The notes beneath the pieces are model-generated. The model was not told the DNA's origin and searched no databases. It saw nothing but the letters and a program-made list of their open reading frames with translations. Shown here in pieces: positions 8,401-29,309 of a DNA stretch of 64,000 bases. A program made the translations under genes and the position numbers. The stretch lies in contig NZ_BMQC01000011.1 of the NCBI RefSeq assembly GCF_014647915.1, forward strand, positions 62,001 through 126,000, read 5' to 3'. How positions within the stretch are numbered: the first letter of the stretch is position 1; every line of letters starts with the position of its first letter. This DNA is from Pilimelia terevasa. GTDB lineage: Bacteria; Actinomycetota; Actinomycetes; Mycobacteriales; Micromonosporaceae.

Positions 8401-8969
8401 TCGCCCGCCACGCTGTCCGAGGAGTCGAGGGCGACCAACAACGCCTGGTCAGAAAGCTGATCGGATGATCGCAGCGACAAGGTTCGCCGCTCGATCGCGC
8501 CGAGGTCACGCATGAGCAGGTCTGCCAGCGTCTCCTCCATCGGAGTTAGTCGTTCCGACTGCCGACTGCCCTGGATCAGTGAGAACGCGCGTGCGGCGAA
8601 GCCTCCGAGGTGGCTGGCTGCGCCGGCTACGAGTCCGTGAAAGCTAAGGTCGTCCCCGGGGGCGGCGTTTCGGGTGGCTGCTTCCAGGGCGTAGGAGCTC
8701 TGGACGAATCCCTGCCGCGCGAGGTCTGCCTGCTCGGGCGAGTCGTTCTGCGCGATCTCCCACAGCTCAAGACTGGTCGACAGCAACGCATAGCCGTAGT
8801 TGAGCAGGTCGGCGTCCAAGAATGCGCTGAAGTTGGGGGCCTCCGGAGGCAGGGTGCCGTTTCGGCGAATCATCGACTGCGCTTGACCTTGAGCCAGAAG
8901 CCGGTTGCGGAAGCCTGCGTCGGTCACCGTGGTCAGGATGTCTACCAGTTCCTGCGCCTCACGGGCCAC
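5466..8969 (-). CDS. hamB: Hachiman helicase HamB
   Basis: An 1167-residue superfamily 2 helicase. Motif I ALPTSAGKTRIAE lies near residue 333, motif II VVLDEGHMIG near 430 (a DEGH box), motif III CLSAVF near 468, and the second RecA domain carries ASPTLAQGLNLS near 660 and VIGRAGRA near 691, followed by a long C-terminal region of about 450 residues without recognised motifs. In Hachiman, HamB forms a complex with the nuclease HamA, scans DNA and releases HamA activity when genome integrity is disturbed by phage. The GTG start at 8969 overlaps the 3' end of hamA by 11 bases, so translation is coupled. The related AbpAB helicase-nuclease pair is the main alternative; the neighbour's DUF1837 features favour Hachiman. 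Confidence 0.85.
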   Translation of the reverse strand: MAREAQELVDILTTVTDAGFRNRLLAQGQAQSMIRRNGTLPPEAPNFSAFLDADLLNYGYALLSTSLELWEIAQNDSPEQADLARQGFVQSSYALEAATRNAAPGDDLSFHGLVAGAASHLGGFAARAFSLIQGSRQSERLTPMEETLADLLMRDLGAIERRTLSLRSSDQLSDQALLVALDSSDSVAGDDTEPDQVGPVVLLLSENYLSAVSSGLFAIEIGDRALLEIALTELREGEQASSDANAPGPWWVYRLTRHMLGGLFDTSLETNIPTDPPAGAAERVERWRYLRRTFVASLLARERSEIDLWPSQLNVVDRLFQDVRDLVVALPTSAGKTRIAELSILACLAQQRRTVYVTPLRALSAQTEHILARTFTPLGIRVSSLYGSMGTSDVDEDTLRSSEIVVATPEKLDFALRSDPSLLDDVGLVVLDEGHMIGASEREVRYEAQIQRLLRRPDASERRILCLSAVFPSGPQLDDFVAWITDDEADGLHRESWRPTQQRFGLVEWRRDHARLSITLGSEQPFIEHYFEEKAPSGRRKKMFPKDQREHVIATGWRLVDEGQTVLVFCPVRKSVEPFARAIVDLHTRGVITSLLPADVDLSDALVVGAEWFGADHPILKCLELGVAIHHGALPGPFRREIERLLQRGILKVTIASPTLAQGLNLSASAVLFHSLHRGRELIKTSEFANVIGRAGRAFVDTEGLVLYPIFAPTPGRRREWFELTQGDGGKELRSGLIEIGFALLSRMYRSQGLTEIEPLLAYLTGGPDWTLPVITGEDATAQEDAAASWRENLKLLDIGILSIVGDGDQDVLADAATQLVADALRDSLWDRQLRRAEDLTRAAVRGLVSSRTRHLWQTATPSQRRGWFLAGLGAQGGSELAQVSGRIIALAGQAETAILEEDHATAADLIVLIAEIVFAIEVFGPKTNLANWSDVLRHWVSGSALGEVPGDRVDIAQFIEDDVIYRLVWGMEAARVYETAQDNAGADTLSGATVAAIETGTFNQAASVLIRTGFDHRLAAIAAVTSADATFDSTQGLRDWIDNLEPEYAFNPAWPTPESRSAWEAFVNPSGRRRARRWSHQTEDVPDVTWYRDVPEPDTWLRITNATPGKINIWSTGFDLLGEANIRLDADRQGILRARRHRADTGIRLRYRGPGDLLPRTPSRRT

Positions 8970-10837: not shown

Positions 10838-11914
10838 TCAGGCGATGAGGAGGCAGGCGTCCCAGGCGGTTGCGGTGGTGCCCATTCCGGCGAGGGCGGC
10901 ACCGGTGGTCCCGGTCAGCAGCCCCAGGGGTTCGTCCGCGTCGCCGGTGGCCCGCTGGTGGAGAGCCGCGATGGTGTTGAGCGGTGTCGGGGTGAGCGCG
11001 TCGGCGGCGATGCGCCTGGCGGTGGCCAGGAGTCCTGCGGTGCCGTGGCATAGGCCGCCCTCGACGAGCCGACCGGTCTGGTCCGGGTCGGTGACGCAGC
11101 AAGCGAAGGCCGTCTCGGCACGGTTCTGCCGGTCGGGTTCGTGCAGGGCCTGCGCGGCGAGCTGTTGGGCGCGGGCGATGCCGGGGGTGCCGTAGCACCA
11201 GGACGGCCGCAGCGGTGTCTGCTGGGTCGGGGCCCCACGGTTCACGTCGGTGAGGGTGAGGGTCTGTGGCCACCAGATCGCGCCGTCGGTGTTCTGTTGC
11301 CAGGTGTCGAGCCATCGGCAGATCCGCTGGATCGCCTCGGAGTGCCCATTGACGGTGATGCCGTCGCGCAAGGTGAGTGCGAGCAGCGCGAGCGGGCCGG
11401 TGATGCCGTGGGCGATGCCGTGGTTGGCGTGGCCGCCGACCGGCGGCGGTTGGTCGCGTTCGGGGCTGTTGCAGCACCACCAGCCGGGAAGTTCAGCTTG
11501 GGGTTCGGTGAGCCGGACGAGGTACTCCAGGACGTCGCGGAGCAGGTCGAGGTCGCCGATCCGGCGTAGGGCGACCCCGAGGCCGGTCAGTCCGCGGATC
11601 AGGTCGTACTCGGCGAAGTGCGGCAGCGCGCCGCGGTCGATGCGGCGGTGCGCCGCCTCCAGCCGCTGCCGGGTGACCATGACGGTGCCCTCAGCGGTGG
11701 TGGCCTTGGCTTGGGCGAGGCCGGGGTGGTCGGCGGCGGCGAGGACGAACGCGAGCGCGGGGGCGCCGTAGAAGAGGCTCGCTCCGGCCGCGATGCTGAC
11801 GCCGCCCACGGTGGCCTGCCGTAGGGCGTCGCGCGCTGCGGGCCAGTTGCCGGTCTCCAGGTGCAGCAGGGCGACGCCGGCAGCTCCGTCGGCGAGCGAC
11901 TGCCCCGCGCTCAT
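10838..11914 (-). CDS. lanthipeptide cyclase LanC
   Basis: A 358-residue LanC-like zinc cyclase that adds cysteine thiols to dehydrated Ser/Thr, forming lanthionine rings. Zinc and catalytic residues are in place: GHANHGIAHG near residues 161-170, Cys240 in SWCYGTPG, and the Cys-His pair at 289-290 in GLCHGTAG. The glycine-rich repeats of the alpha/alpha toroid (IRGLTGLGVALRRIG, HGITGPLALL) are visible. It is slightly short at the N-terminus compared with typical LanC proteins of about 400 residues. Its ATG overlaps the stop of the dehydratase gene by 4 bases, so the two are translationally coupled. Confidence 0.93.
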   Translation of the reverse strand: MSAGQSLADGAAGVALLHLETGNWPAARDALRQATVGGVSIAAGASLFYGAPALAFVLAAADHPGLAQAKATTAEGTVMVTRQRLEAAHRRIDRGALPHFAEYDLIRGLTGLGVALRRIGDLDLLRDVLEYLVRLTEPQAELPGWWCCNSPERDQPPPVGGHANHGIAHGITGPLALLALTLRDGITVNGHSEAIQRICRWLDTWQQNTDGAIWWPQTLTLTDVNRGAPTQQTPLRPSWCYGTPGIARAQQLAAQALHEPDRQNRAETAFACCVTDPDQTGRLVEGGLCHGTAGLLATARRIAADALTPTPLNTIAALHQRATGDADEPLGLLTGTTGAALAGMGTTATAWDACLLIA

Positions 11915-14652
11915 GCCGTCCGCCTCGCGTGGGCGGTGTGGGCGACGGTGCGGGCCAGGCGCAGGCAGTGCTGCTCGGATGCGGTGCCGACACCGATCAT
12001 GCGGGCGTGGTGCAGGTGCAGCAGGTCGCCGAGTACCTGGTCCGGGTCGAGCCCGTCCGCCTCGACCAGCGCCCGATAGGTGGCCAACGCTGAGGCCAGG
12101 CGCTCGTCGTGGAACGGGACTCGAGCGGCGTCGAGCTGGGCCGGATCCAGCCGCGGGCCGGTGTGTCGGGGGACGTGCGTGGTCAACCAGCGCAGGCCAT
12201 CGCCGGTGAACCCGTCAGCGATGGTGATCATGCTGGCGGCGGTGTTGGCCTGCCGGTCGCCGGTCAGCCGGCGCAGGGCGGCGTGGGAGTCGGCGGCGAA
12301 CACGACCTCGGCCGCCGCCAGGATCGGCCCGACGCCGTGCCGGGTCTCCGGCCGGTACTGATGCAGGCTGTAGTCCTGGACGACGGCATCGCCGTGAAGT
12401 TCCTCCACCCAGCGGGCGAGGTGGCGGGCGGCGTCCGCGAACCGGTCGACGTGCGGAAGCGGGATGCGCAGCCGCAGGTGGGGTTCGGGCTCGGGGTACC
12501 GCAGGAACCACCAGCCCGGCGGTAGGTAGTCGGCGGCGCGTCCGGCGAGGTCGGCGAGGATGGCGTCGACCCGCCCGTACAGGCGGGCCTCCAGCCACCT
12601 CGACCGGCCGGGCAGGTGCACGACGGTGCTCGCCCGCCGGGCGGAACGAGGCGGTCGGGTGGCCGGCGCAGGGTCGGTGAGGGTGAGCATCAGCTCGGCG
12701 GGGCGGTTGTCGATCCAGCCCGCCGGACCAGGCGCCTCGGTGATCACGGCGCGGCCATGCCGGTCGAGGTGCTCGCGCAGGACCGCCAAGTGCGCGGGCT
12801 GGTCCAGGTCGAGGCGCAGTTGTACGTCGTCGCCGCCGATGAGGACGTGCTGCGGAATGTGCCACTGGTGCTGGTGGCGCTGCCACGCGTCCCGCCACTG
12901 CGGCCATTCGGCGGTGCGAGCCGGGACCGCGGTGGGCTCGATGGTCCAGCGGGCCGGGTGCAGAATGCTGCGTCCGCGCCGCACGCGGGGTAGGAACGGC
13001 AGGCCGGCGGCGTGCCCCCAGTCGAACCGGGTGCACGGCGAGTTGTAGGCGGTCCAGATCTCGGCCAGGAACCGCGTCAGCGGCTGCTGAAGCGACGGGA
13101 GCACGCTGTTGCACAGCAACGGCTCGACCGGCTGGCCGGTGCTCCGGGACACCAGCCACAGCCGCCGGCCGTCTCCGGTGACCGCCAGATCCGCCACGGT
13201 CCACGGCGGCGCGGGATGGAAGTCGCCGACCGGGAGCACCGGCAGCAGCTCGGGCGTACGGGCCAGGGCCGCGAGGCGGGCGTCCAGCGGCGGGCCGGAC
13301 AGTTGCACGGTGGCCGCGCCGGGCAGGGTGGTCGGCAGCTCGCGGTATACCCGCTGGAACGAGGCGAACTCGGCGGGCGTGAGCAGGTGCAGGAACCGGC
13401 CGGCGGACACCCCGGCGTGCCGTGAGCCGCTGAGCACCGTCAGGACGAACTCGCCGCGGTCCAGATCCCGCAGCGTGTCGGCGGCGAGGGAGAACCGCAG
13501 CTCGCTGTGCGGCACCGATGGCCGGTCGTCGCCGCCGCGCAGCCGCTCGATCAGCGCATCATCCAGGAGCACCTCGGCGCACTCGTCGAGCGCTGATTGC
13601 TGGGCGAGTTGGCCGAGCAGCCGATCCCGGCCGGTGAACTTCGCGGGTGTACGGCGGGTCGATCCGCGGTATCCGGCCGGGAACCCGAGCACGCTGAGCA
13701 CGTCGCGCAGGGGCACGGCCGCTCCCGGCCCCCACCGCTCGATGAACGCTCGGTGGTACTCGACCCAGCCCGGCAGCGGCGGCGCCACCGCCACCAGCGT
13801 CGCCGCGGCCCGCCCGGCCTCGCGCAGCACCGCCGGCGGAAGGGCGACCTCGACATCGGCTCGCAGGTCGACCGCGACCCGCTCACCGGGATCACGCGTC
13901 GTGCCGCCATCCGGTGCGTAGCCGGCAGGGTCGGTGACCATCGCCGGGCGCAGCGCCGACAGCAGCACTCCGGCCTTCACCAGGTCGGCCAGCAGCCGCT
14001 CGGCTGCCGCCGCGCCAGCGCCCGGTCCCGCGATCTTTGCGGCGAGGTCGGCGAACCCGATCGGCGTCCGCGCCGCGTCGATCGCGGTCCGGACCGGGCC
14101 GGTGAGGCGGACCTCGACATCCCACCGCCGGTCACCGTCGGTGCGGGCGTACGGCAGCACCCACCGCCCGGCGCGCTCGTACCCGAGGGAGTTGGTCATC
14201 ACCGCGGCCGTGCGCAACGCGGCGAGGTTCTGCTCGACGCGCGCGGTGTGCTCGGCGATGACTTCGCCGTCCGGGCGCGCGACCGCCCGATGGGCTTCAC
14301 CCACCCGGACGCTCGCGCGGGTACCGAAGTTGACGGGGGCCACTCCGACTAAGGTGCCGAACGGGGTCGCGCGGGTGGTCCACCGCAGCAGGTACCTAAC
14401 TGCCGTTCCCACGAGGCGGCGCAGCCGGTGCTCCTCGATCGGCTCACCGGACACGACTTGAGTGATCCGCCCGGCGAGGTCCGGCGCTGCGGAGGTCACC
14501 GCCGCCGCGAATTGCGGCGATGCCCAGACCGCGGCGAGCCAGGTGCGCCACTCGTCCGGTCCGGCCGAGGCCGGGTCCGGCCAGGCGGGCAGGACCAGAT
14601 CGTTGGGGTAGGAGGCGACTCGGATCAGCGCCGCACCGGCTGCGGAAATCAC
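11911..14652 (-). CDS. class I lanthipeptide dehydratase LanB
   Basis: A 913-residue LanB. The first two thirds match the glutamylation domain (MISAAGAALIRVASYPNDLV, RYLLRWTTRATPFGTLVGVA, GRDRLLGQLAQQ). The last 220 residues match the elimination (SpaB_C) domain (WLEARLYGRVDAILADLAG, WWFLRYPEPEPHLRLRI, VQDYSLHQYRPETRHGVG). It dehydrates Ser and Thr of the precursor core using glutamyl-tRNA, in the cytoplasm. It follows the precursor gene by 72 bases and overlaps lanC by 4. The length is close to full-size LanB proteins, and no lesion is visible. Confidence 0.93.
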   Translation of the reverse strand: MISAAGAALIRVASYPNDLVLPAWPDPASAGPDEWRTWLAAVWASPQFAAAVTSAAPDLAGRITQVVSGEPIEEHRLRRLVGTAVRYLLRWTTRATPFGTLVGVAPVNFGTRASVRVGEAHRAVARPDGEVIAEHTARVEQNLAALRTAAVMTNSLGYERAGRWVLPYARTDGDRRWDVEVRLTGPVRTAIDAARTPIGFADLAAKIAGPGAGAAAAERLLADLVKAGVLLSALRPAMVTDPAGYAPDGGTTRDPGERVAVDLRADVEVALPPAVLREAGRAAATLVAVAPPLPGWVEYHRAFIERWGPGAAVPLRDVLSVLGFPAGYRGSTRRTPAKFTGRDRLLGQLAQQSALDECAEVLLDDALIERLRGGDDRPSVPHSELRFSLAADTLRDLDRGEFVLTVLSGSRHAGVSAGRFLHLLTPAEFASFQRVYRELPTTLPGAATVQLSGPPLDARLAALARTPELLPVLPVGDFHPAPPWTVADLAVTGDGRRLWLVSRSTGQPVEPLLCNSVLPSLQQPLTRFLAEIWTAYNSPCTRFDWGHAAGLPFLPRVRRGRSILHPARWTIEPTAVPARTAEWPQWRDAWQRHQHQWHIPQHVLIGGDDVQLRLDLDQPAHLAVLREHLDRHGRAVITEAPGPAGWIDNRPAELMLTLTDPAPATRPPRSARRASTVVHLPGRSRWLEARLYGRVDAILADLAGRAADYLPPGWWFLRYPEPEPHLRLRIPLPHVDRFADAARHLARWVEELHGDAVVQDYSLHQYRPETRHGVGPILAAAEVVFAADSHAALRRLTGDRQANTAASMITIADGFTGDGLRWLTTHVPRHTGPRLDPAQLDAARVPFHDERLASALATYRALVEADGLDPDQVLGDLLHLHHARMIGVGTASEQHCLRLARTVAHTAHARRTA

Positions 14653-14724
14653 GCTTGCACCACCGAGGGGGTCGGCGGGTCCGGCGCCGCGCGGGCGCCG
14701 GACCCGGTACGAGGGGTTGGGGGG

Positions 14725-14883
14725 TCAGTTGCCGCCGTCGCAGCGGGTGGTGCCGGCGTTGGAGCCGGTGTTGCCCGACCCGCAGCCGTCACTGGTGTTG
14801 GTGGAGTAGCCGCTGGCGGCGGGGCCGGCGTCGACCAGGCTGACGTCGAGGACGAACTCTTCTTCGATGGTCGTGTCGCTCAT
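14725..14883 (-). CDS. FxLD-family lanthipeptide precursor, 52 aa
   Basis: A short gene between the methyltransferase and LanB. The ATG at 14883 is preceded by AGAGAGG at a good distance and lies 12 bases past the methyltransferase stop. The leader starts MSDTTIEEEFVLDVSLVD; FVLD is the FxLD recognition motif used by LanB enzymes. The likely core follows AGPAA: about ten Ser/Thr and two Cys (34 and 48), in SDGCGSGNTG and TTRCDGG. Both cysteines are next to Asp-Gly (Asp32-Gly33, Asp49-Gly50), the sequence most prone to succinimide formation, which fits the adjacent isoaspartate-forming methyltransferase. Up to two lanthionine rings are possible. The leader cleavage site is not certain. Confidence 0.9.
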   Translation of the reverse strand: MSDTTIEEEFVLDVSLVDAGPAASGYSTNTSDGCGSGNTGSNAGTTRCDGGN

Positions 14884-14895
14884 GGGCTTGCCTCT

Positions 14896-16137
14896 CTATG
14901 AAGGGTTGAAGGCGAGGACGATGCGGCTGTGCCGCTTGTCCAGCACCGTCCCGGCCGGCAGGTCGCCGTCGGGAGTACCAGCGGGCGCGACATGCAGCAC
15001 CGGCGAGGGCGTGCCGGCGTCCAGCCACGCGCGCATCTGCTCGACCATCCGCCCCGCCGCCGCGGCAGCAGCCGGCCCGTGCGCGCGGGCGCCCACGTCG
15101 AACAGGTCACCGGTCCAGGTCAGGTCCGAGCGGTAGCAGAAGGTGCCGTCGGCCAGCGCGGCGGGCGTGCCGAACCGCCACGCCGGGGCGACGCGGCCGG
15201 CGTCGATGGCCTCCTGCTGCGCGGTGAGCACCACGAACTGCTGCCCGTCGTCGGTGGTGCGGGCGGCCAGCCACAGGTCGAGGTCGGCCAGGACCGTGCG
15301 CGCCGGCAGGCTCGCACCGGCCCACTCCTGCACCGGCGGCTGGGCCAGCAGCGCGCTGACCGCCTGGGTGTCGATCTGCTGGCCGAGTTCGTCCAGCCGC
15401 AGGTGCACGCCCTGCGCGATGTCGACGAAACGCATCTCGTGGGCGCCGGCCCCCTGCATGGACACGAACCCGCACAGCCGCTGGCTGCGGCTGACCAGCC
15501 GGTCACCGGTGCGGCGCAGCGCCCACGAGCGAGTCATCCCGAAGGTGCGCAGCGGCACCACCAGGGTGCCGTGCTCGGCGAGCTGGGCGGTCCACGCCGG
15601 CGGGATGTCCCACGCCCCGACCGTCACAATGATCAGGTCGTAGAGGCGACCGTCGGCGATCGGCTGTTCGGCGTCGGCGCACACCACGCGCACGTCGTCG
15701 TAGCCAGCCGCGATCAGGCAGGCGGTAGCGCGGTCGGTGACGTCGCTGTCGATGTCCACTGTCGTCACCGATCCCGCCGGCCCGACCAGCTCGGAAAGCA
15801 GGGCCGCGTTGTAGCCGCCGGAGCCGATCTCCAGCACGTGCCGGCCGCACAGTCCACCGTCCACGGCGTCGGCGGCCTGGCCGAGCATCTCCGCGATCAG
15901 CCACGGCGCCGACACCGAGCTGATCGCCTCGTCGCCGCGCCGCTTGGTGACCACCGCCTCATCGGCGCGGTACGCCTGGGTCAGCGGGGCGTCCGGGGTG
16001 AACAGGTGGCGGGGGACGGCGCGCAACGCCGCCTCCACCTCGGGTCGCATCGTCAGCCCCTTGTCCCCGTGGTCGGAGACGAGCTGGTCGACCATCGCGG
16101 TATGCAGGTCCTCGCTCGGCATGGTGTCGACGCTCAC
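14896..16137 (-). CDS. FxLD-system O-methyltransferase (LanS_A / PCMT-like)
   Basis: A protein of about 413 residues related to protein-L-isoaspartate O-methyltransferase, of the type paired with FxLD lanthipeptides (the characterised relative is OlvSA). It methylates an Asp side chain inside the ring-containing peptide; collapse to succinimide and hydrolysis give isoaspartate. The signature VEAALRAVPRHLFTPDAPL, the switch region ISSVSAPWLIAEML and the SAM motif VLEIGSGGYNAALL are present, plus a C-terminal extension of about 200 residues typical of the FxLD group. I prefer the GTG at 16137, with GAGGAG nine bases upstream; the frame is open to 16170. It is the first clear biosynthetic gene of the operon. 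Confidence 0.9.
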   Translation of the reverse strand: MSVDTMPSEDLHTAMVDQLVSDHGDKGLTMRPEVEAALRAVPRHLFTPDAPLTQAYRADEAVVTKRRGDEAISSVSAPWLIAEMLGQAADAVDGGLCGRHVLEIGSGGYNAALLSELVGPAGSVTTVDIDSDVTDRATACLIAAGYDDVRVVCADAEQPIADGRLYDLIIVTVGAWDIPPAWTAQLAEHGTLVVPLRTFGMTRSWALRRTGDRLVSRSQRLCGFVSMQGAGAHEMRFVDIAQGVHLRLDELGQQIDTQAVSALLAQPPVQEWAGASLPARTVLADLDLWLAARTTDDGQQFVVLTAQQEAIDAGRVAPAWRFGTPAALADGTFCYRSDLTWTGDLFDVGARAHGPAAAAAAGRMVEQMRAWLDAGTPSPVLHVAPAGTPDGDLPAGTVLDKRHSRIVLAFNPS

Positions 16138-16245
16138 TGGGATGCACTCCTCTTCCATCAGGGCCGCCACGTGGGACGGCTCGGCTTCGGGCTGTTCGGG
16201 CTCAACACCGGGCTGAGCGACGGGACTCGAGATCGGCTTGCGCGG

Positions 16246-16768: not shown

Positions 16769-16783
16769 GTAGTTGTACAGATG
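16769..16783 (-). promoter_or_regulatory. operator-like motif upstream of lanthipeptide operon
   Basis: The plus strand reads GTAGTTGTACAGATG. It matches 12 of 15 bases of each arm of the perfect inverted repeat at 22125-22162, including ten identical bases TTGTACAGAT. It lies between the divergent lanthipeptide operon and the pentapeptide-repeat gene. I infer a binding site for a shared regulator, possibly the XRE protein at 22161-22481, or a shared promoter element. Confidence 0.5.
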
Positions 16784-16834
16784 GCGGCGCGCGCGGCGGC
16801 TTGGCATGTCGGGGCGGCTGGCTACGGTGGGGCC

Positions 16835-17518
16835 ATGGTCGTGCGTTCCCCGCGGCGCGGTGTCACGCGCTGGCAGCCCCCGCAGCCGCCCACCGTCCCC
16901 GCCTCGCTGACCCGCGGGGTACTGCCGGACCACGACTTGGACCATGAGGTGTCCTTCGACCGGGTCGAGTTCGACGGCCTCGACTTGACCGGCCGCCGCG
17001 CGGGCGGGGTGCAGTTCGAGGAGTGCCGGCTGGTCCGTACGGATCTGGCGGAGACGGTGCTGGACCGGTCGCAGTTCTCCGAGTGCATCGCCGAGCAGGC
17101 GAACTGGGCGAATCTGAAGGCCACGAAGTTGACGTTGCTGCGCTGCCGGCTGTCCGGGCTTCGGCTGACCGGCCTGCACTGGGTCGACGGCGGCCTGCGC
17201 GACGTCACGATCTCCGAGTGCCGGGTGGACCTGGCGTCGTTCCGGTTCTCGTCGTTCTCCGCGGTGCTGTTCGAGGACTGCGTCCTGACCGGCGCGGACT
17301 TCACCGGCGCGAAGTTGGGCGGTGCCCGGTTCGTGGGCTGCGACCTGACCGGCGCCCGGTTCCCCGAGGCACAGCTGAAGGGCGCGGAGTTCTCCCGCTG
17401 CACCCTGGCGGACATCGACGGGATTACCAACTTCGCCGGGGCGGTGATCGACAGCCACGACCTGATCGCCCTGTCCTACACGCTGGCTGGGGCGCTGGGC
17501 ATTCAGATCCGCGACTGA
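16835..17518 (+). CDS. pentapeptide-repeat protein
   Basis: A 227-residue right-handed beta-helix protein built from A(D/N)Lxx-type repeats, for example FDGLDLTGRRAGGVQFEECR, CVLTGADFTGAKLGGARFVG and CDLTGARFPEAQLKGAEFSR. The start is the ATG at 16835; upstream in-frame residues lack a ribosome binding site. It diverges from the lanthipeptide operon across a shared 125-base region with the TTGTACAGAT motif and ends three bases from the stop of the convergent carbamoyltransferase gene. Pentapeptide proteins of the MfpA/Qnr type protect DNA gyrase and often sit beside toxin genes, so self-protection is conceivable, but nothing in the sequence fixes the partner. Confidence 0.85.
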   Translation: MVVRSPRRGVTRWQPPQPPTVPASLTRGVLPDHDLDHEVSFDRVEFDGLDLTGRRAGGVQFEECRLVRTDLAETVLDRSQFSECIAEQANWANLKATKLTLLRCRLSGLRLTGLHWVDGGLRDVTISECRVDLASFRFSSFSAVLFEDCVLTGADFTGAKLGGARFVGCDLTGARFPEAQLKGAEFSRCTLADIDGITNFAGAVIDSHDLIALSYTLAGALGIQIRD

Positions 17519-17520
17519 TG

Positions 17521-19233
17521 TCACCGCCGGCCCCCGATGAGGGGGGTCTTGCTGACCAGCAGCGGGCCTAGCTGTAGGTGTTGCAGGTCGGACCCGTCGA
17601 GGACGGCGAGGGCGCCGGCGGCGGTGCGGGCGATGGGCTGGCCGTGCAGGTTCAGTGAGGTGTTGAGCAGGATCCCGCGCCCAGTGGCCTGCTGGTAGGC
17701 GGTCAGGATGGCGGCGAGGCCGGTGTCGGTGTGGTCGTCGACGATCTGTGGCCGGCAGGTCAGGTCCGCGGGGTGGACCGCGGCGATCATCTCGGGCAGG
17801 GCGTCGGCGCGGGCGGGCATGGCCAGCATCATGTGCGGGCTGGGCAGCTTCTTCGGGTTGTGCAGGTAGTCGTGCTGGCGGCTGGCGAGCACGGCGGGGG
17901 CGAACGGCATCCAGAAGTCGCGCTGCTTGACAAGCCGGTTCAGGATCCGCGGCAGGTCGGGGTTGGCGGGGTCGGCGAGGATGGACCGGTTGCCCAGGGC
18001 GCGGGCGCCGAACTCCATCCGCCCCGCCGCCCGACCGACGATTTCGCCGCGGGCGACCAGCGCCGCGACCGCGGCGGCTGGGTCGGCAGGGTGCTCGACG
18101 TGGTAGCCGGGCCGGTCGGCCAGGGCCGCGGCGGCGTCGGCTTCGGTGATGTCGTCGCCGAGGTAGCAGTCCGCCAGCGGCGCGACGTCGGCGTGCCCGT
18201 ATTCGTCGGCGGTGTGCTGGTACAGGGCACCCAGCGGAAGGCTCTCGTCGCCGCAGGACGGGAACGCGGCGAAGCTGTCGACGCCGGGCAGGGCGGCGAG
18301 GCGCTGGTTTGCCTTGACGTTCATGAACACCCCGCCGGCGGCGAGGACGTCGCGGATGCCGGTGTGCGCGACGGCGGCGGCGGTCCAGTCGGCGAGGAGG
18401 TTCTCGGTGAACAGCTGCAGTCCGGCGAAGACGTCGTCGAAGCGGCGGCCTTGCAGCCGGGCGGCGATCCGCGGCCAGCTGCGCTCCACCGACGCGGTGG
18501 TGGTGCGGCGGAAGGTGAGTCCGTCGGCGGAGAGCTTGAGGAAGTCGCCGTAGACCGCAGCGACCTGGCTGGCCCGGCCGGGATCGGCGTGGGGGGCCAT
18601 GCCCATGAGCTTGTACTCGTCCTCGTGCGGGGTGAAGCCGTGGGCGTGGGTGGTCCAGAAGTACAGCAGCCCGAGACTGTTGCGCAGGTCCGTGCGCGCT
18701 ACCTCGGTCGCGTGGCCGTTGCGCCAGACGGTGATGGTGGCGCAGGCGCCGTCGCCGAACCCGTCGCAGGTCAGCACCAGGTAGGGGCGGGCGGGGTCGG
18801 CGCGTAGGCCGTAGTAGGCGGTGGCGGCGTGGGTGCGGTGGTGTTCGTAGAAGCTGACCGGCGCCTTCACGCCCACGCCGGCGAGGGCGTCGGTGACCTG
18901 GCGGCGGTTGGCCGGGGAGTCGTCGGCGAGCAGTTGCACCTCGTGGCGGGCGACGCCGGGTCGGCGGTGGAAGTCGACGAGCCGGCGCAGGAACTCCTCA
19001 CGCGGGCAGTGCGCGACCGGGCCGGTGCGGGCGCCGTAGGCGACGGCGGTCACGTCGGCCGGATCCGCGGCGACGTGGCGCAGGCATGCGGCGATCGCCT
19101 CGCGGGGGAAGCCGATGTGTCCCTTGTTCCGGGTCAGGCGTTCCTCCTGCACGCAGTAGATCAGCCGGCCGTCGACGGCGATGGCGGCCGCGGAGTTGGC
19201 GCCGGCATGCAGGGCGAGGGTCAGGGCGGTCAC
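17521..19233 (-). CDS. NodU/CmcH-family O-carbamoyltransferase
   Basis: A 570-residue carbamoyltransferase that activates carbamoyl phosphate as carbamoyl-adenylate and transfers it to a hydroxyl group. The N-terminal HSP70/Kae1-like domain carries CVQEERLTRNKGHIGFP near residue 30 and metal-binding histidines in YEHHRTHAATAYY near 130. The C-terminal YrdC-like domain carries the hallmark GRMEFGARALGNRSILADP near residue 390, then FWMPFAPAVL. The start at 19233 overlaps the stop of the upstream radical SAM gene (GTGA), so it belongs to the same operon. By context the acceptor would be the modified 53-aa peptide or a compound derived from it, which is inference. All key motifs look intact. Confidence 0.93.
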   Translation of the reverse strand: MTALTLALHAGANSAAAIAVDGRLIYCVQEERLTRNKGHIGFPREAIAACLRHVAADPADVTAVAYGARTGPVAHCPREEFLRRLVDFHRRPGVARHEVQLLADDSPANRRQVTDALAGVGVKAPVSFYEHHRTHAATAYYGLRADPARPYLVLTCDGFGDGACATITVWRNGHATEVARTDLRNSLGLLYFWTTHAHGFTPHEDEYKLMGMAPHADPGRASQVAAVYGDFLKLSADGLTFRRTTTASVERSWPRIAARLQGRRFDDVFAGLQLFTENLLADWTAAAVAHTGIRDVLAAGGVFMNVKANQRLAALPGVDSFAAFPSCGDESLPLGALYQHTADEYGHADVAPLADCYLGDDITEADAAAALADRPGYHVEHPADPAAAVAALVARGEIVGRAAGRMEFGARALGNRSILADPANPDLPRILNRLVKQRDFWMPFAPAVLASRQHDYLHNPKKLPSPHMMLAMPARADALPEMIAAVHPADLTCRPQIVDDHTDTGLAAILTAYQQATGRGILLNTSLNLHGQPIARTAAGALAVLDGSDLQHLQLGPLLVSKTPLIGGRR

Positions 19234-20621
19234 GAGATGGCTCCGGCGGGCTGGCGGGTGGGAATGTCGAGCAGGTCGGTGAACCACTGCCACTCGGCGA
19301 ACTTCAGCTCGGCCAGCCGGGTCAGGTCCCCGGCCCGGGACTCGTGCAGCCCGGCGAGGACGGGCCGGACATGCTGGGCGTACCAGTCGGACAGCTGGGC
19401 GTCGAGGTCGGCGATCTCGGGGTCGGCGAACCGGAAGCCGCGGTGGAACGGTGCGGCATCGAGCAGGCCGTCGTCGCGGATGCGGCGCTCGGCGACCGTG
19501 CCGGGGATGACCAGCAGCCGCGAGCGGGCCAGGAACTGCGGGACCCGGTGGCGGCCGAACTCCTCCAGGGCGGCCAGCTCGGCGCGCAGGGCGGGCAGGG
19601 TTTGCCAGGGGTGCCAGAGGATGTAGCTGGCCACGGTGGTGATGCCGGCGGCATCAGCCGCCGCCACCACGCGGCGCAGGTGGTCCAGGTCCTGACGTTT
19701 GCCGTACAGGCGGTGCAGCGTGTCCGGGTTGAGCGACTCCACGCCGATGAGCAGTACGTCGACGCCGGCTTCGGCGAGCAGGGTGATGGCTTCGCCGGTG
19801 AGGGTCTCGGACCGGATGTTCATGCTCAACCCCACCCGCCCAGCCAGGCCGTGGGCGTGGAGGGCGTCGCGGAGTTGGCCGGCGCGGCGGATGCAGGCGT
19901 CGCGGGTGCCGCCGAAGTCGACGTCGTCCATGGAGAAGCGGGTGGCGCCGGTCAGCTCGTGCAGGTGGGCGATGTCGGCGACCGCAGCGGCGATGGGGAG
20001 TTCGGTCCAGCCGGCGCCGAGGTCGGCGTTGTAGGCGCAGAAGGTGCAGCGGGATCGGCAGCCGCGGCTGGCCGACACCGACACCACCGCCTCCGGCTGC
20101 CGAGCCACATCCTCGGCGGTGAGGTCGAGCAGCGAGGTGTGGCCGCGCAGCGCGTCCGCCGCATCGGCGGCGACCGCGGCCACGAGCGGGTCGCGGGCGG
20201 GCCCGCTGTTGGGGTGCAGGCCGACGACGTGGTCGACGGCGCCGTGGGCGCGCAGCTCCGCGGCGGCGCTGGTGGCCAGCGGCCCGAACCCGAGCACCGC
20301 GACCGCGTGCCGGAAACGGGCGGCGGCCAGTTCGTCGGCGATCTCGGCCAGCCGCGGCCCGTAGGCGTCGGAGGTCCACAGGTGCACGATCAGCACGTCG
20401 AACCCGCCACCTGCGAGCACGTCGGCGAGCGGAGAGGCGTTGGCGGCGCGGTTGTAGGCGTCCAGCAGGCAAACGTGGTGGCCGCGGGCGCGTAGGTGGG
20501 CATGCAGGGCGAGCGCTTCGCCGTCGACGTGGTGCTGCTTGAACCCGCCCTCGTACAGGCTCGGCGCCCACAGCAGGATCCGCGCCCGCCGGGTCGGGGT
20601 CAGCACTCGCAGCGCCGGCAT
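19230..20621 (-). CDS. B12-binding-type radical SAM enzyme
   Basis: A 463-residue enzyme. An N-terminal cobalamin-binding-like Rossmann domain (about residues 14-135; LHAHLRARGHHVCLLDAYN, then DVLIVHLWTSDAYGPRL) is followed by a radical SAM barrel with the cluster motif CRSRCTFC (CxxxCxxC) and an HxxxR-free core containing LLIGVESLNPDTLHRLYG. Members of this class often methylate unactivated carbons or rearrange skeletons. The frame stays open far upstream, but that part lies inside the other radical SAM gene. The ATG at 20621 gives a normal length and a 22-base overlap with the upstream gene. It is cotranscribed with the SPASM maturase and carbamoyltransferase. Confidence 0.88.
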   Translation of the reverse strand: MPALRVLTPTRRARILLWAPSLYEGGFKQHHVDGEALALHAHLRARGHHVCLLDAYNRAANASPLADVLAGGGFDVLIVHLWTSDAYGPRLAEIADELAAARFRHAVAVLGFGPLATSAAAELRAHGAVDHVVGLHPNSGPARDPLVAAVAADAADALRGHTSLLDLTAEDVARQPEAVVSVSASRGCRSRCTFCAYNADLGAGWTELPIAAAVADIAHLHELTGATRFSMDDVDFGGTRDACIRRAGQLRDALHAHGLAGRVGLSMNIRSETLTGEAITLLAEAGVDVLLIGVESLNPDTLHRLYGKRQDLDHLRRVVAAADAAGITTVASYILWHPWQTLPALRAELAALEEFGRHRVPQFLARSRLLVIPGTVAERRIRDDGLLDAAPFHRGFRFADPEIADLDAQLSDWYAQHVRPVLAGLHESRAGDLTRLAELKFAEWQWFTDLLDIPTRQPAGAIS

Positions 20622-21811
20622 GGCGTGGCCACCTCCCCCCGGAACGCGGCCATCGTCGCCGAGGAGAACCACACCTGGTCCAGGTCGTCGGTCAGCAGGT
20701 TCCCGCACCGCATGGCTGGGTTCTCCACACCGAAGATGCAGGGGTAGATGTCGGCGCGCTGGTCCACGGCGAAGCCGACGGTGCCGCTGCCGCACGGCTC
20801 GTCGGGGTTGATCGTCTCGATCTCCACCGCGTGCAGCCGGGCCAGCCGCGCGCACTCCGGCACGAGCGTGCCCATGATCTGCGCGTCGTCGAGGGTGTGC
20901 GCGACCGTGGAGCGGCCGACGGGCTTCTGCGGGAAGAACTTGAACCGCGAACAGCCCACCTGCACGCCGACCTTGACGATCTGCTCCAGCTCGGCAAGGT
21001 TCATCCGGTTGACCACCGTGTTGATCACCGGGGTGGCGAACTGCGCGATCTGCTCGATCCCCGCCAGCGTCCGGGCGAACGAGCGGGGGGCGCCGCGGAT
21101 CAGCTCGTGCGTGGCGGCGGTGCCGCCGTCGAGTGATACCTGCACCGTGCCGACACCCAGCTCGCGCAGCCGGGTGAGGGTGCGTGGGGGTAGGACGGTG
21201 GCGTTGGTGCTGACCCCGAACCCCATCCCGCGGCCCAGGATCTCGCCGGCGATGTCGAAGAACCCGTCCAGCATCAGGCTCGCCCCGCCGGTGACGTAGA
21301 CGTCGAAGACGCCGTAGTCGTCGAGCCGCCCTATCACCTCCCGCCACGTCTCGGTCGGCAGCAGGAACGGGTCGGCTTTCGGGCCGCCGGAGCAGTAGCA
21401 GTGCAGGCACTTCTGATTGCACACGGTGAACGGCTGCAGGTGCACCCACATCGGTTTCAGCACCGGCAACGCGGGCCGGCGCTCAGCGATTGCGCGGCCG
21501 GCCCCGTCCAGGTCCGCCGCGGTGACCGCAGTCGGGCGCTCGTCGGCGGCGACCAGCACGTCCTGGTCGAGAAGGCTGGCGACGATCTCCGCCCAGCCGG
21601 CCTCGGTGATCGGGTCCAGGCCGGGCACGTGCACCGCCGGCGACGGCGCGGCGGCGGGCCGGGACCGGTGGTGCAGCAGCACCAGCGCGACGGCGGCGGG
21701 GTGCAGGTTGAAGATGCGCCGCGGCCGGCCCCGCCACGCCAACGCCCCGAAGTGCTCATGCCGCAGCCGCAGATCCGGCGCGACGGTGATAGCCGCTGGA
21801 AGTACCGACAC
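20600..21811 (-). CDS. radical SAM/SPASM peptide maturase with PqqD-like N-terminus
   Basis: A 403-residue radical SAM enzyme. The first 90 residues resemble a PqqD-type precursor-binding (RRE) domain (HFGALAWRGRPRRIFNLHP). The barrel follows, with FTVCNQKCLHCYC (CxxxCxxC), VYVTGGASL and VQVSLDGGTAATHELIRGAP. A C-terminal SPASM-like cysteine set includes CGSGTVGF, IYPCIFG, RCGNLL and PCRRCEC, which should bind auxiliary iron-sulfur clusters. This layout is that of RiPP maturases. The GTG at 21811 is chosen for the purine-rich GGAAGGGGGG site before it. It begins 59 bases after the candidate precursor gene. The exact chemistry cannot be read from sequence. Confidence 0.9.
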   Translation of the reverse strand: MSVLPAAITVAPDLRLRHEHFGALAWRGRPRRIFNLHPAAVALVLLHHRSRPAAAPSPAVHVPGLDPITEAGWAEIVASLLDQDVLVAADERPTAVTAADLDGAGRAIAERRPALPVLKPMWVHLQPFTVCNQKCLHCYCSGGPKADPFLLPTETWREVIGRLDDYGVFDVYVTGGASLMLDGFFDIAGEILGRGMGFGVSTNATVLPPRTLTRLRELGVGTVQVSLDGGTAATHELIRGAPRSFARTLAGIEQIAQFATPVINTVVNRMNLAELEQIVKVGVQVGCSRFKFFPQKPVGRSTVAHTLDDAQIMGTLVPECARLARLHAVEIETINPDEPCGSGTVGFAVDQRADIYPCIFGVENPAMRCGNLLTDDLDQVWFSSATMAAFRGEVATPCRRCEC

Positions 21812-21870
21812 CCTGACCCCCCTTCCCGGGTGGTGGGGCGGGCCTGCTGGCGCCCGCCCCACCACGACCA

Positions 21871-22032
21871 TCACTTCGCCGCCGACACCTGGCGGTCAGC
21901 GGTCGCGGCCTGCTTGCCGGTCGGGAACGGACGGTCCGGGGCGACTGTGCCCGAGTAGGTCCGGTGGCCGATCGACAGCGACGCCGCCGCGGTCGTCTCG
22001 TACGCCGTCACCGGCGGATACGTCGAGGACAT
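21871..22032 (-). CDS. candidate RiPP precursor, 53 aa
   Basis: A short gene directly in front of the radical SAM maturase. ATG at 22032 with a near-perfect AGGAGG eight bases upstream, the best ribosome binding site in this operon. The peptide starts MSSTYPPVTAYETTAAASLS, continues with IGHRTYSGTVAPDRPFPTG and ends QVSAAK. It has no cysteine; Tyr, His, Arg, Thr and Ser are concentrated in the middle. It fits a substrate for C-C or C-O crosslinking, methylation and carbamoylation, and the maturase has a PqqD-like domain to bind it. I do not recognise the family. A regulatory peptide or a non-RiPP small protein is possible. Confidence 0.75.
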   Translation of the reverse strand: MSSTYPPVTAYETTAAASLSIGHRTYSGTVAPDRPFPTGKQAATADRQVSAAK

Positions 22033-22063
22033 GCCGATACCTCCTGCGATATCGCTGGGTTTC

Positions 22064-26418: not shown

Positions 26419-27813
26419 TTACGCCTCCTGAAGATGGTGGGGCAGACGGGGACGAAGGCCGGCCGCGTACATGCCGGCCAGGACCAGCACGCCCACCCCG
26501 AGCCAGATCACGCCGACTTGCTGGGCGAGCAGGTTCGCGTTGACCGCGACCGCGATCAACACCGCCGCCCCGGCCAGCGGCAGCAGCAGTTGACGGACGA
26601 ACTTGGGGCGGCGGCCGGCACGGCTGTGGTGCCAGATCACCGACGCGTGCAGGGTGATGAAGGCGATCACCGCGCCGAAGTTCACCAGCGAGGACAGCAG
26701 GGTGATGCCGTCGGCGCGGCCGGCCATCCACACCCCCAAGCCGAGGGAGAGCACGGCGGTGGTGAGGATCGCGTTGATCGGCACCGCCCGCTTCAGCGAC
26801 ACCCGGGCGAGGAACGCGGGTAGCTGCCGGTCGCGGGCCATCGCATACAGCAGCCGCGACGTGGCGGCCTGGGCGACCAGTGAGTTGGCGATCCCCCACG
26901 CCAGGGCGGTGGCGATCGCAGTCAGCGTGGCCAGCCAGCCGCCGCCTGCGACGCGCGCGGCGTCGTAGAACGCCGTCCCGGCCGGGTCGCCGTTGGCGAT
27001 CAGGCCGTCCGGGTCCGGAGCGAGCAGGGCGGCGACCCAGCCCTGTACGACGAACAGCGTCCCGGCCAGCAGCAGCGCGGCGACCATCGCCCGGCCGACC
27101 TGACGGCTGCCATCGCGGGTCTCCTCGGCCAGCATCGAGATCCCGTCGAAGCCCAGGAAGCTCAGCATGGCCACCGACACCGCGGCGAAGATCACCGGCC
27201 AGGCGAACGCGTCCGGGTCGAACAGCGGGCTCCACTCGAAGCCCCGCCCCTTTCCGTCAGCCAGCGCCTTCATCCCGATGGCGAGGAACACGCCCAGCAC
27301 GGCCAGCTCGGCGACCAGGAACACCTTCGTCACCAGGGCGGTCAGCCGGATCCCGAAGCTGTTGACCAGCGTGTTGAGCAGCACGAACCCGACCACCCAC
27401 ACCAGCGTCGGAACCGCCGGGAAGGCCGCGTTCATCGCCACCCCCGCCACGACGTACAGCAGGCACGGGACCAGCAGGTAGTCCAGCAGCACCGCCCACC
27501 CGGCCAGGAACCCGACCGGGGCCGCGATGCCGCGGCCGGCGTAGTTGTAGACGCTGCCCGCCATCGGGTACACGCGCACCATCTGCGCGTAGGAGTTTGC
27601 GGTCAACATCATCGCCACCATGCCGACCAAGTACGCCAGGGCGACCATCCCGGCCGACGCCGAGAAGACCGAGCCGAAGATTCCGAACGGTGCGATCGGC
27701 ACCATGAAGATCAACCCGTAGAACAGCAGATCCCGGGTGGTGAGCGTGCGGCGGAGTTCTTGGCGGTAGCCGAATCGTTCGAGTGAGGGGTCGGTTCTGG
27801 TCACGTGCAACAC
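26419..27813 (-). CDS. APC-superfamily amino acid/amine permease
   Basis: A 464-residue secondary transporter with about twelve hydrophobic helices. The first contains GLIFMVPIAPFGIFG and the conserved glycine-rich VYNYAGRGIAAPVGF lies near residue 90; SFLGFDGISMLAEETRDGSR near residue 220 is the classical APC motif. It should import an amino acid, amine or amide by proton symport. It is the first gene of a three-gene operon with the amidase and GPP34 protein. GTG start at 27813. The divergent regulator at 28017 may control it across the 200-base gap. Confidence 0.9.
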   Translation of the reverse strand: MLHVTRTDPSLERFGYRQELRRTLTTRDLLFYGLIFMVPIAPFGIFGSVFSASAGMVALAYLVGMVAMMLTANSYAQMVRVYPMAGSVYNYAGRGIAAPVGFLAGWAVLLDYLLVPCLLYVVAGVAMNAAFPAVPTLVWVVGFVLLNTLVNSFGIRLTALVTKVFLVAELAVLGVFLAIGMKALADGKGRGFEWSPLFDPDAFAWPVIFAAVSVAMLSFLGFDGISMLAEETRDGSRQVGRAMVAALLLAGTLFVVQGWVAALLAPDPDGLIANGDPAGTAFYDAARVAGGGWLATLTAIATALAWGIANSLVAQAATSRLLYAMARDRQLPAFLARVSLKRAVPINAILTTAVLSLGLGVWMAGRADGITLLSSLVNFGAVIAFITLHASVIWHHSRAGRRPKFVRQLLLPLAGAAVLIAVAVNANLLAQQVGVIWLGVGVLVLAGMYAAGLRPRLPHHLQEA

Positions 27814-28016
27814 TTCCTGCCTCGGAATCGGGGGTGAGGGCCGGTGATCCCGGAGAGCGTTCTACCTACCGGCGGCGTTGTATGGTCATGGACCACGGAG
27901 CGCGGGATCGAGGGGCCGACCTGTCCGCGCGTCGTGACCGTCCAAGCACACTCCCGCCGCCTCGGACGGACAACAACCCGGGGCGAATCAGTACCGAATC
28001 AAACTGCGAAGGGCCC

Positions 28017-29309
28017 ATGACGGCGGACGGCATGCCCGATGCGCTGCGCGAGGCGCGGCGTAGCTCCGGCATCGCGTTTCACCGCTTCGCCAGCCTCGCC
28101 GGATACTCCGAGGGTCACCTGCGCAGTGTCGAGAACGGGCGCCGGGCGGTCACCGAGGACATCGCCACCGCGTACGACCGAGTGCTCCGCACCGGGGGTA
28201 TGTTCGTCGTCCAGCTGCGGACGCTCGGCGGCATCGACGCGGTGTCGTGGGGGCGGGCCAGCACCGAGGCCTTGCTGACGACGATCACGCAAGAAACGGA
28301 CGATGTGAAGCGACGCTCCATCCTGGCGCTGCCCTGCGGGGCCATGGCCGCCACAGCCACCCTATGGGCGGACGCCCTCAGCCCAGCTACGCCCGTCGAG
28401 GGCCACGGCCCCCAGCGCATCGACGTCCGCCTTGTGGATCACATCGATCAGCGGCTCGACCACCTGCGCCACCTCGACGATCAGATAGGCAGCGGGGAAC
28501 TCACGCGGCTTGCCCGGTCCGAGCTAACGCTGATCGCACGCCTGCTCCGCAACGGTCGATTCACCGAACCGGTGGGCCGGCGCCTGTACTCACTGGCCGC
28601 GGAAGCGAGCAGGCAGGCGGCGTGGGGACACTTCGACCAAGACCACAACGTCTCAGCGCAGCGCTACTTCGATCTCGCGCTTCGCGCGTCAGCGGACGCA
28701 GGCGATCCTGCCGCGGGTGCGTACGCCATGTCGTTCATGGCTGTGCAGTGCTACTCGACCGGCCATCCGCGCGACGCCATCGCGCTCCTCGAGGCCGCGC
28801 AAGCAGCCATCTCGCGGACCGGCACGGCGCGCATGAAAGCCATGCTCGCGGCCCGTCATGCTCGCGCGCTGTCGAAGACCGGTGACAAGCAGGCGTACGC
28901 CAGGATGCTGCACAAGGCGCGGGTCGAACTCGAGCGCGGCCCGAGCGAGGACGACCCGCCGACGTTGTACTGGGTCAGCGAGGCCGAGATCGAGATGATC
29001 GCCGGATCGTCCGCGTTGGACCTGGGTGACGCGCGAGAAGCCATTCGTCGGTTCGATGCCGCCATCGCAGCGGACACTGTCAAGGGCGAATACGCGCGCA
29101 GCCAAGCCATCTACTTCGCGAGGGCAGCAAAGGCGCACATTCAGGTCGGTGACCTCGATGGCGCCCTCTCGCGCGCCGAAGACGCCCGCCAGTGTCTCTC
29201 CAGCGTGGACTCAGCTCGTTCGTCAGCAACGCTGGCTCAGCTCCGTGGACTGCTGCGCTCGCACGCCAAGAGCCGAGCGGTCCGAACCTTCCTGCAGCAG
29301 GACGCCTGA
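28017..29309 (+). CDS. XRE regulator with C-terminal TPR-like region
   Basis: A 430-residue regulator. The N-terminal helix-turn-helix (residues 1-70) includes REARRSSGIAFHRFASLAGY and SEGHLRSVENGRRAVTED. About 300 residues of paired helices follow and resemble tetratricopeptide repeats (RYFDLALRASADAGDPAAGA, DAIALLEAAQAAISRTGTAR, EAIRRFDAAIAAD). The ATG at 28017 is preferred over upstream codons, which fall in non-coding sequence. Regulators of this plan often respond to a peptide or small molecule through the repeat domain. It diverges from the permease operon and is a candidate regulator of it. Confidence 0.85.
   Translation: MTADGMPDALREARRSSGIAFHRFASLAGYSEGHLRSVENGRRAVTEDIATAYDRVLRTGGMFVVQLRTLGGIDAVSWGRASTEALLTTITQETDDVKRRSILALPCGAMAATATLWADALSPATPVEGHGPQRIDVRLVDHIDQRLDHLRHLDDQIGSGELTRLARSELTLIARLLRNGRFTEPVGRRLYSLAAEASRQAAWGHFDQDHNVSAQRYFDLALRASADAGDPAAGAYAMSFMAVQCYSTGHPRDAIALLEAAQAAISRTGTARMKAMLAARHARALSKTGDKQAYARMLHKARVELERGPSEDDPPTLYWVSEAEIEMIAGSSALDLGDAREAIRRFDAAIAADTVKGEYARSQAIYFARAAKAHIQVGDLDGALSRAEDARQCLSSVDSARSSATLAQLRGLLRSHAKSRAVRTFLQQDA

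What the first reader, a model, noticed from the sequence alone, without database searches (positions are those of the whole stretch)
21871..22032. 53-aa candidate precursor with no recognised family
The peptide has a perfect ribosome binding site and lies 59 bases before its putative maturase. Its middle section (GHRTYSGTVAPDRPFPTG) concentrates aromatic and hydroxyl residues and lacks Cys, unlike ranthipeptides or sactipeptides. None of the triceptide, streptide or mycofactocin core patterns I know fits it.
Basis: partly seen in the sequence, partly recalled or inferred. Interest (0 to 1): 0.7.

Follow-up and report, generated by a model that had tools for sequence, protein, structure and literature searches.

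The report
New radical-SAM peptide precursor family
A tiny gene really encodes the starting peptide of a rare, undescribed peptide natural product, which two radical enzymes and a carbamoyl-transferring enzyme probably convert into an antibiotic-like molecule, beside a gene that resembles bacterial protectors of DNA gyrase.

Summary
The 53-aa ORF (22032-21871, minus strand) is real. It is the precursor of a rare peptide cassette that no Pfam or NCBIfam family names. Eight of 354 Micromonosporaceae genomes have a small ORF in front of a homologous maturase, with invariant core G-[C/H]-[K/R]-T-Y-[S/T]-G-T-[I/V]-A. A DNA pattern for that core hits exactly these eight genomes, once each.

Absence of Cys is peculiar to this genome: the seven relatives have Cys where it has His.

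Downstream the cassette has a SPASM radical-SAM maturase with an MftB-like peptide-recognition domain, a B12-type radical-SAM enzyme, and a NodU/TobZ-class carbamoyltransferase. Convergent pentapeptide-repeat protein(s) resemble EfsQnr, QnrB and AlbG. A strong hairpin separates precursor and maturase.

Best reading: a new radical-SAM RiPP family whose Tyr-centred core is modified by two radical enzymes and carbamoylated; the product may target gyrase, with the pentapeptide protein as immunity. RiPP identity is about 0.9 likely; the chemistry and target are inferred. The carbamoyltransferase lacks the catalytic His of its class in all eight genomes. Not mycofactocin, sacti- or ranthipeptide: a new variant of a known kind.

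The parts
21871..22032 (-). Precursor peptide gene, 53 aa. Leader about residues 1-22 (V8..Y11...A17.L19.I21.G22), core G22-H-R-T25-Y26-S27-G28-T29-V-A31, variable tail 32-53
22040..22045 (-). Ribosome binding site AGGAGG, 7 nt before the ATG
   Evidence: sequence
21831..21864 (-). Hairpin (13-bp G+C-rich stem) between precursor and maturase; present with different sequence in six of six relatives folded; probably sets precursor/enzyme expression ratio
   Evidence: z -2.8 here, -3.4 to -5.8 in relatives; alignment
20600..21811 (-). Radical SAM maturase, 403 aa: MftB-like recognition domain (about 1-90), radical SAM core CxxxCxxC (131-138), short SPASM/twitch-type C-terminus (C340, C358, C398, C401, C403)
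19230..20606 (-). B12-type radical SAM enzyme, about 458 aa; likely GTG start at 20606 overlapping the maturase stop
17521..19233 (-). Class III (NodU/TobZ/NovN) carbamoyltransferase, about 570 aa; likely GTG start at 19233 overlapping the previous stop; catalytic His position of TobZ/GdmN is Ala
16781..17518 (+). Convergent pentapeptide-repeat protein (start may be the ATG at 16835), candidate immunity protein; relatives have two in tandem here

Best explanation
The ORF is the precursor of a new family of radical-SAM RiPPs. Proposed sequence of events: (1) the leader V..[FY]...A.A[S/T]L.[L/I]G is bound by the MftB-like domain at the N-terminus of the maturase; (2) the SPASM radical-SAM maturase makes a radical modification (cross-link or desaturation) in the T-Y-[S/T]-G-T core, most likely centred on the Tyr; (3) the B12-type radical-SAM enzyme adds a second modification, such as C-methylation or another radical rearrangement; (4) the class III carbamoyltransferase puts a carbamoyl group on a core hydroxyl (Tyr/Ser/Thr) or on the free N-terminus after cleavage; (5) an unlinked protease releases the product. 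The product is probably an antibiotic-like molecule, possibly acting on DNA gyrase, and the pentapeptide-repeat protein(s) protect the producer. Shown here: conserved precursor, conserved cassette, enzyme families, exact co-occurrence. Inferred: all chemistry, order of steps, target. Rough probabilities: RiPP precursor 0.9; Tyr-centred maturase chemistry 0.6; carbamoylated product 0.6; gyrase-type target 0.4.
For: Homologous ORF with invariant core G[CH][KR]TY[ST]GT[IV]A in all 8 loci. Core pattern, maturase and B12-type enzyme occur in the same 8 of 354 genomes. In L016 the DNA shared with the other relatives starts 69 bp before the precursor ATG and ends after the pentapeptide-repeat genes, so the precursor is the first gene of the shared unit. 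Purifying selection on the core. MftB (TIGR03967) is the only NCBIfam match to the maturase N-terminus at E 9e-5, and the top match in all five members tested. Radical SAM and SPASM domains by Pfam. AprD4, TsrM and OxsB are the nearest folds to the second enzyme. NovN, 7xb6, TobZ and GdmN are the nearest solved relatives of the carbamoyltransferase. EfsQnr, QnrB1, AlbG and MfpA are among the solved relatives of the pentapeptide-repeat protein, and AlbG is best for its relative in L008. An NsdA-type regulator diverges from the cassette in L008, in a block shared by six relatives. Carbamoyltransferases are known in two RiPP pathways.
Against: No product, expression or mass data. No protease or exporter is conserved in the block. 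The usual general-base His of class III carbamoyltransferases is Ala in all eight, so transfer activity is not assured. Pentapeptide-repeat proteins are repetitive, which inflates similarity, and not all act on gyrase. The maturase model was too poor to use (mean pLDDT 49.7). The maturase body scores about equally against AhbD, TIGR04053 and MftC, so its sequence alone does not fix the reaction.
Confidence: 0.72

Rival explanations
1. The cassette makes a small cofactor-like molecule from the core Tyr, as PQQ and mycofactocin are made, and the rest of the peptide is discarded.
For: MftB-like recognition domain; MftC among the best-scoring families; relatives show C-x-x-Y in the core, which resembles the C-terminal CGVY of MftA (recalled from memory, not tested).
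Against: The Tyr is internal, not C-terminal, and the residues after it (SGT-[IV]-A) are as conserved as those before it, so they matter to more than recognition of a tail. Gyrase-protection-like proteins fit an antibiotic better than a cofactor. The cassette occurs in only 8 of 354 genomes of the family.
Confidence: 0.18
2. The short ORF is a regulatory leader (attenuator) peptide of the enzyme operon; the hairpin after it is the attenuator and the enzymes act on another substrate.
For: Strong conserved hairpin right after the ORF.
Against: The core is conserved in amino acids with synonymous drift; the maturase carries a peptide-recognition domain; hairpins between precursor and enzymes are usual in RiPP operons (own knowledge); no run of one amino acid's codons.
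Confidence: 0.05
3. It is a RiPP, but the carbamoyltransferase carbamoylates the core Lys to homocitrulline, as StdF does, rather than a hydroxyl.
For: Lys at core position -1 is invariant in the seven relatives; StdF precedent (PMC13174530).
Against: The position is Arg in this window, while the carbamoyltransferase is intact.
Confidence: 0.15

Closest known systems
Mycofactocin (MftA/MftB/MftC)
   Same: MftB-type recognition domain plus SPASM radical-SAM maturase acting on a short peptide with a conserved Tyr
   Different: Domain fused to the maturase; Tyr internal instead of C-terminal; no MftA family match; MftC score 97 bits against a cut-off of 265; extra B12-type enzyme, carbamoyltransferase and pentapeptide-repeat protein
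Std pathway (StdF, homocitrulline RiPP, PMC13174530) and crocagin (CgnI, PMC10070186)
   Same: RiPP pathways with a carbamoyltransferase (NodU-like in StdF)
   Different: No radical-SAM enzyme is named in the Std paper (0 occurrences); the crocagin scaffold is made by CgnB, CgnC and CgnE; different precursors and cores
Albicidin cluster (Alb15 carbamoyltransferase, AlbG pentapeptide-repeat immunity)
   Same: Carbamoyltransferase together with a gyrase-protecting pentapeptide-repeat protein
   Different: Albicidin is made by a non-ribosomal assembly line (own knowledge); here a ribosomal precursor and radical-SAM enzymes
Sactipeptides, ranthipeptides, streptide, triceptides
   Same: SPASM radical-SAM maturase with recognition domain
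   Different: Cys-based linkage impossible in this window (His at the site where relatives have Cys); core motif does not match those known to me; no family model over its cut-off

Membership tests
RiPP (ribosomally made, post-translationally modified peptide) | Short precursor gene next to modifying enzymes, conserved core among homologues | tested here: met
RiPP (ribosomally made, post-translationally modified peptide) | Leader-recognition domain on a modifying enzyme | tested here: met
   MftB-like N-terminus, E 9e-5, weaker but same top match in relatives; below the curated cut-off of 33 bits; fold not confirmed (model poor)
RiPP (ribosomally made, post-translationally modified peptide) | Peptide actually modified | not testable with these tools
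   needs expression and mass spectrometry
Mycofactocin | Precursor with C-terminal Val-Tyr (MftA family) | tested here: not met
   Tyr is residue 26 of 53; no NCBIfam match at E up to 1
Mycofactocin | MftC equivalog score over cut-off | tested here: not met
   97.3 bits against 265
Mycofactocin | Separate MftB protein over cut-off | tested here: not met
   only match in the genome is this maturase's N-terminus, 22 bits against 33
Sactipeptide/ranthipeptide | Core Cys that forms a thioether | tested here: not met
   no Cys in the window precursor; His replaces the Cys of relatives
Class III O-carbamoyltransferase (TobZ/GdmN/NovN) | Kae1-like and C-terminal carbamoyltransferase domains | tested here: met
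   PF02543 and PF16861; NovN E 1e-57
Class III O-carbamoyltransferase (TobZ/GdmN/NovN) | Iron ligands His, His, Asp, Asp | tested here: met
   H151, H155, D177, D349 (numbering of alignment A4's first row) are invariant; correspondence to GdmN H133/H137/D156/D333 is inferred from motif spacing
Class III O-carbamoyltransferase (TobZ/GdmN/NovN) | General-base His (GdmN H27, essential; PMC9633730) | tested here: not met
   column is Ala in all eight; an invariant His lies three residues earlier and might replace it
B12-dependent radical SAM enzyme | N-terminal B12-binding-type domain plus CxxxCxxC radical SAM domain | tested here: met
   PF02310 weak (E 5e-4, below cut-off), PF04055; AprD4/TsrM/OxsB fold matches on a model of mean pLDDT 65. 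Cobalamin use not testable
Gyrase-protecting pentapeptide-repeat protein (Qnr/MfpA/AlbG) | Right-handed pentapeptide-repeat helix | tested here: met
   by sequence only: Pentapeptide_4 E 2e-30; EfsQnr, QnrB1, AlbG matches
Gyrase-protecting pentapeptide-repeat protein (Qnr/MfpA/AlbG) | Protects gyrase | not testable with these tools
   needs a supercoiling assay

The most novel reading that the evidence does not exclude
A RiPP class of its own: an MftB-MftC-like fused enzyme modifies an internal T-Y-[S/T]-G-T core, a B12-type radical enzyme adds a second change, and a carbamoyltransferase with a relocated catalytic base carbamoylates it, giving a ribosomal, radical-made gyrase inhibitor whose producers protect themselves with Qnr-like proteins.
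Probability: 0.27. Interest if true: 0.82.

Novelty: new variant of a known kind. Interest (0 to 1): 0.64.

Why it matters
It defines a compact, self-contained cassette (precursor, two different radical-SAM enzymes, one carbamoyltransferase, candidate immunity) that no family model or paper found here describes. The combination predicts a carbamoylated, radically modified peptide and names a testable target. If the pentapeptide-repeat protein is the immunity factor, this would be a radical-SAM-made peptide that acts on gyrase. The altered carbamoyltransferase active site is a separate enzymology question that can be tested at once.

Tried and rejected
Structure prediction of the maturase (seven sequences) gave mean pLDDT 49.7 and was not used. 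The wish to fold the recognition domain with the peptide could not be met: only single window proteins can be folded. Plasmid and phage collections hold no relative of the maturase. Wider samples found none outside the family: maturase query, 396 genomes of the phylum at E 1e-50; B12-type-enzyme profile, 394 genomes of the class at E 1e-25; both sampled, so rare distant copies may be missed. Lys carbamoylation considered and ranked low because the window has Arg. Cys-thioether chemistry rejected because the window has His. Attenuator peptide rejected on codon evidence. The neighbouring FxLD methyltransferase/LanB/LanC genes (10838-16170) were considered as part of the cassette and set aside: tblastn of the methyltransferase and LanB finds them at none of the seven related loci. 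The HTH, M28 peptidase and GPP34 genes upstream are likewise not conserved there, apart from a weak HTH match in L016.

Full report
Observation. The ORF lies on the minus strand at 22032-21871 and encodes 53 residues. AGGAGG stands 7 nt before its ATG. The next gene starts at 21811, 59 nt after the stop. The DNA is high-GC and the window lies in a 4.5-Mb genome of unknown name. L001, a named relative locus, is Micromonospora andamanensis; I take the family of the window to be Micromonosporaceae because that locus is the same contig as G190, which the tool lists as same family.

Is it real? The maturase has 58-62%-identical relatives. Searching the held Micromonosporaceae genomes with the maturase and with the next gene downstream gave the same 8 genomes of 354. 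In front of each maturase lies a short ORF with a shared core. The alignment of eight precursors gives GxxTYxGTxA as invariant, in full G[CH][KR]TY[ST]GT[IV]A, with a looser leader pattern and a variable tail. As a blind test I searched all 354 genomes with a degenerate DNA pattern for the core alone: it matches those 8 genomes once each and no other, and the reversed control pattern matches none. Within the window it matches once, against none in 100 shuffles. In the seven relatives the core has 94% nucleotide identity against 77% for the leader and 75% for the spacer, and its few changes are mostly synonymous (6 to 2; P 0.009). The relatives share ancestry, so these are not eight independent events.

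Cassette. The shared DNA block is compact. In L016 it begins 69 bp before the precursor ATG and ends after the pentapeptide-repeat genes; in six relatives it also holds an upstream stretch that in L008 encodes a divergent NsdA-type regulator. The order is precursor, SPASM radical-SAM maturase, B12-type radical-SAM enzyme, carbamoyltransferase, then convergent pentapeptide-repeat genes: two in each relative, one in the window. The likely start codons of the second and third enzymes overlap the preceding stops (sequence), which suggests translational coupling. A strong hairpin stands between precursor and maturase in the window and in all six relatives folded, with unrelated stem sequence in the window.

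Enzymes. Maturase: Pfam Radical_SAM and SPASM. Its first 115 residues match only MftB, the mycofactocin recognition protein, in NCBIfam (E 9e-5 here, 0.0035 to 0.078 in four relatives, below the curated cut-off). The body is best matched by MftC, AhbD and TIGR04053, all far under cut-off. Second enzyme: radical SAM with a weak B12-binding domain match; on a moderate model (mean pLDDT 65) the nearest folds are AprD4, TsrM and OxsB. Third enzyme: carbamoyltransferase N- and C-terminal domains, nearest solved relatives NovN, a carbamoyltransferase (7xb6), TobZ and GdmN. GdmN uses His27 as essential general base, and its authors report it universally conserved in that subclade (PMC9633730). In the alignment that column is Ala here, and it is Ala in all eight members, with an invariant His three residues earlier. 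The iron-ligand motifs are intact. Pentapeptide-repeat protein: Pentapeptide_4 E 2e-30; solved relatives include 2w7z (EfsQnr), QnrB1, the McbG-like 2xt2/2xt4 (AlbG) and MfpA (the names EfsQnr and AlbG for those entries are my own knowledge), and for the L008 homologue 2xt4 is best at 1e-17. Such proteins serve as producer resistance genes in topoisomerase-inhibitor pathways (for example PMC9886550, PMC8837603, PMC12406682, listed).

Mechanism (inference). The leader is bound by the MftB-like domain; the maturase modifies the Tyr-centred core; the B12-type enzyme adds a second radical modification; the carbamoyltransferase adds a carbamoyl group to a hydroxyl or the freed N-terminus. Cys is not required, since His replaces it in the window. 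Lys carbamoylation is disfavoured, since Arg replaces Lys. No protease or exporter is in the shared block, so these steps would use genes elsewhere. The gyrase target rests only on the pentapeptide-repeat protein.

Known systems. Two RiPP carbamoyltransferases are described, CgnI (PMC10070186) and StdF (PMC13174530; its authors call StdF the second example). Literature searches for radical-SAM plus carbamoyltransferase RiPPs, and for radical-SAM RiPPs with pentapeptide-repeat proteins, found no description of this cassette, within an open-access library. It fails tested defining features of mycofactocin and of sacti/ranthipeptides, so it is not filed under either.

Verdict. A real, previously unnamed radical-SAM RiPP precursor family, limited in the genomes sampled to a few Micromonosporaceae. 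What the product is remains inference.

Noticed in passing
window 10838-16170 (-): A separate FxLD-type RiPP cluster stands next to the cassette: FxLD methyltransferase (TIGR04364, 420 bits, over cut-off), LanB-like protein with TIGR03891 domain, LanC-like protein.
   Followed up: partly
L010 6120-9747: In genome G078 the cassette is decayed: the maturase has a frameshift after about 35 codons and the B12-type enzyme is split by an insert of about 1 kb that carries a 314-aa transposase-like ORF, while the precursor ORF is intact.
   Followed up: partly
window 17521-19233 (-) and relatives: The carbamoyltransferase family lacks the class's general-base His in all eight members, with an invariant His three residues upstream.
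   Followed up: partly
L008 435-1772 (-): NsdA-family regulator diverging from the cassette; the DNA block is shared by six relatives but absent from the same place in L016 and the window. Another NsdA-family gene lies in the window at 27783-29309.
   Followed up: partly
window 5466-8969 (-): 1167-aa protein with a Hel308-like helicase domain in its middle, with a 295-aa ORF of no NCBIfam family next to it.
   Followed up: no
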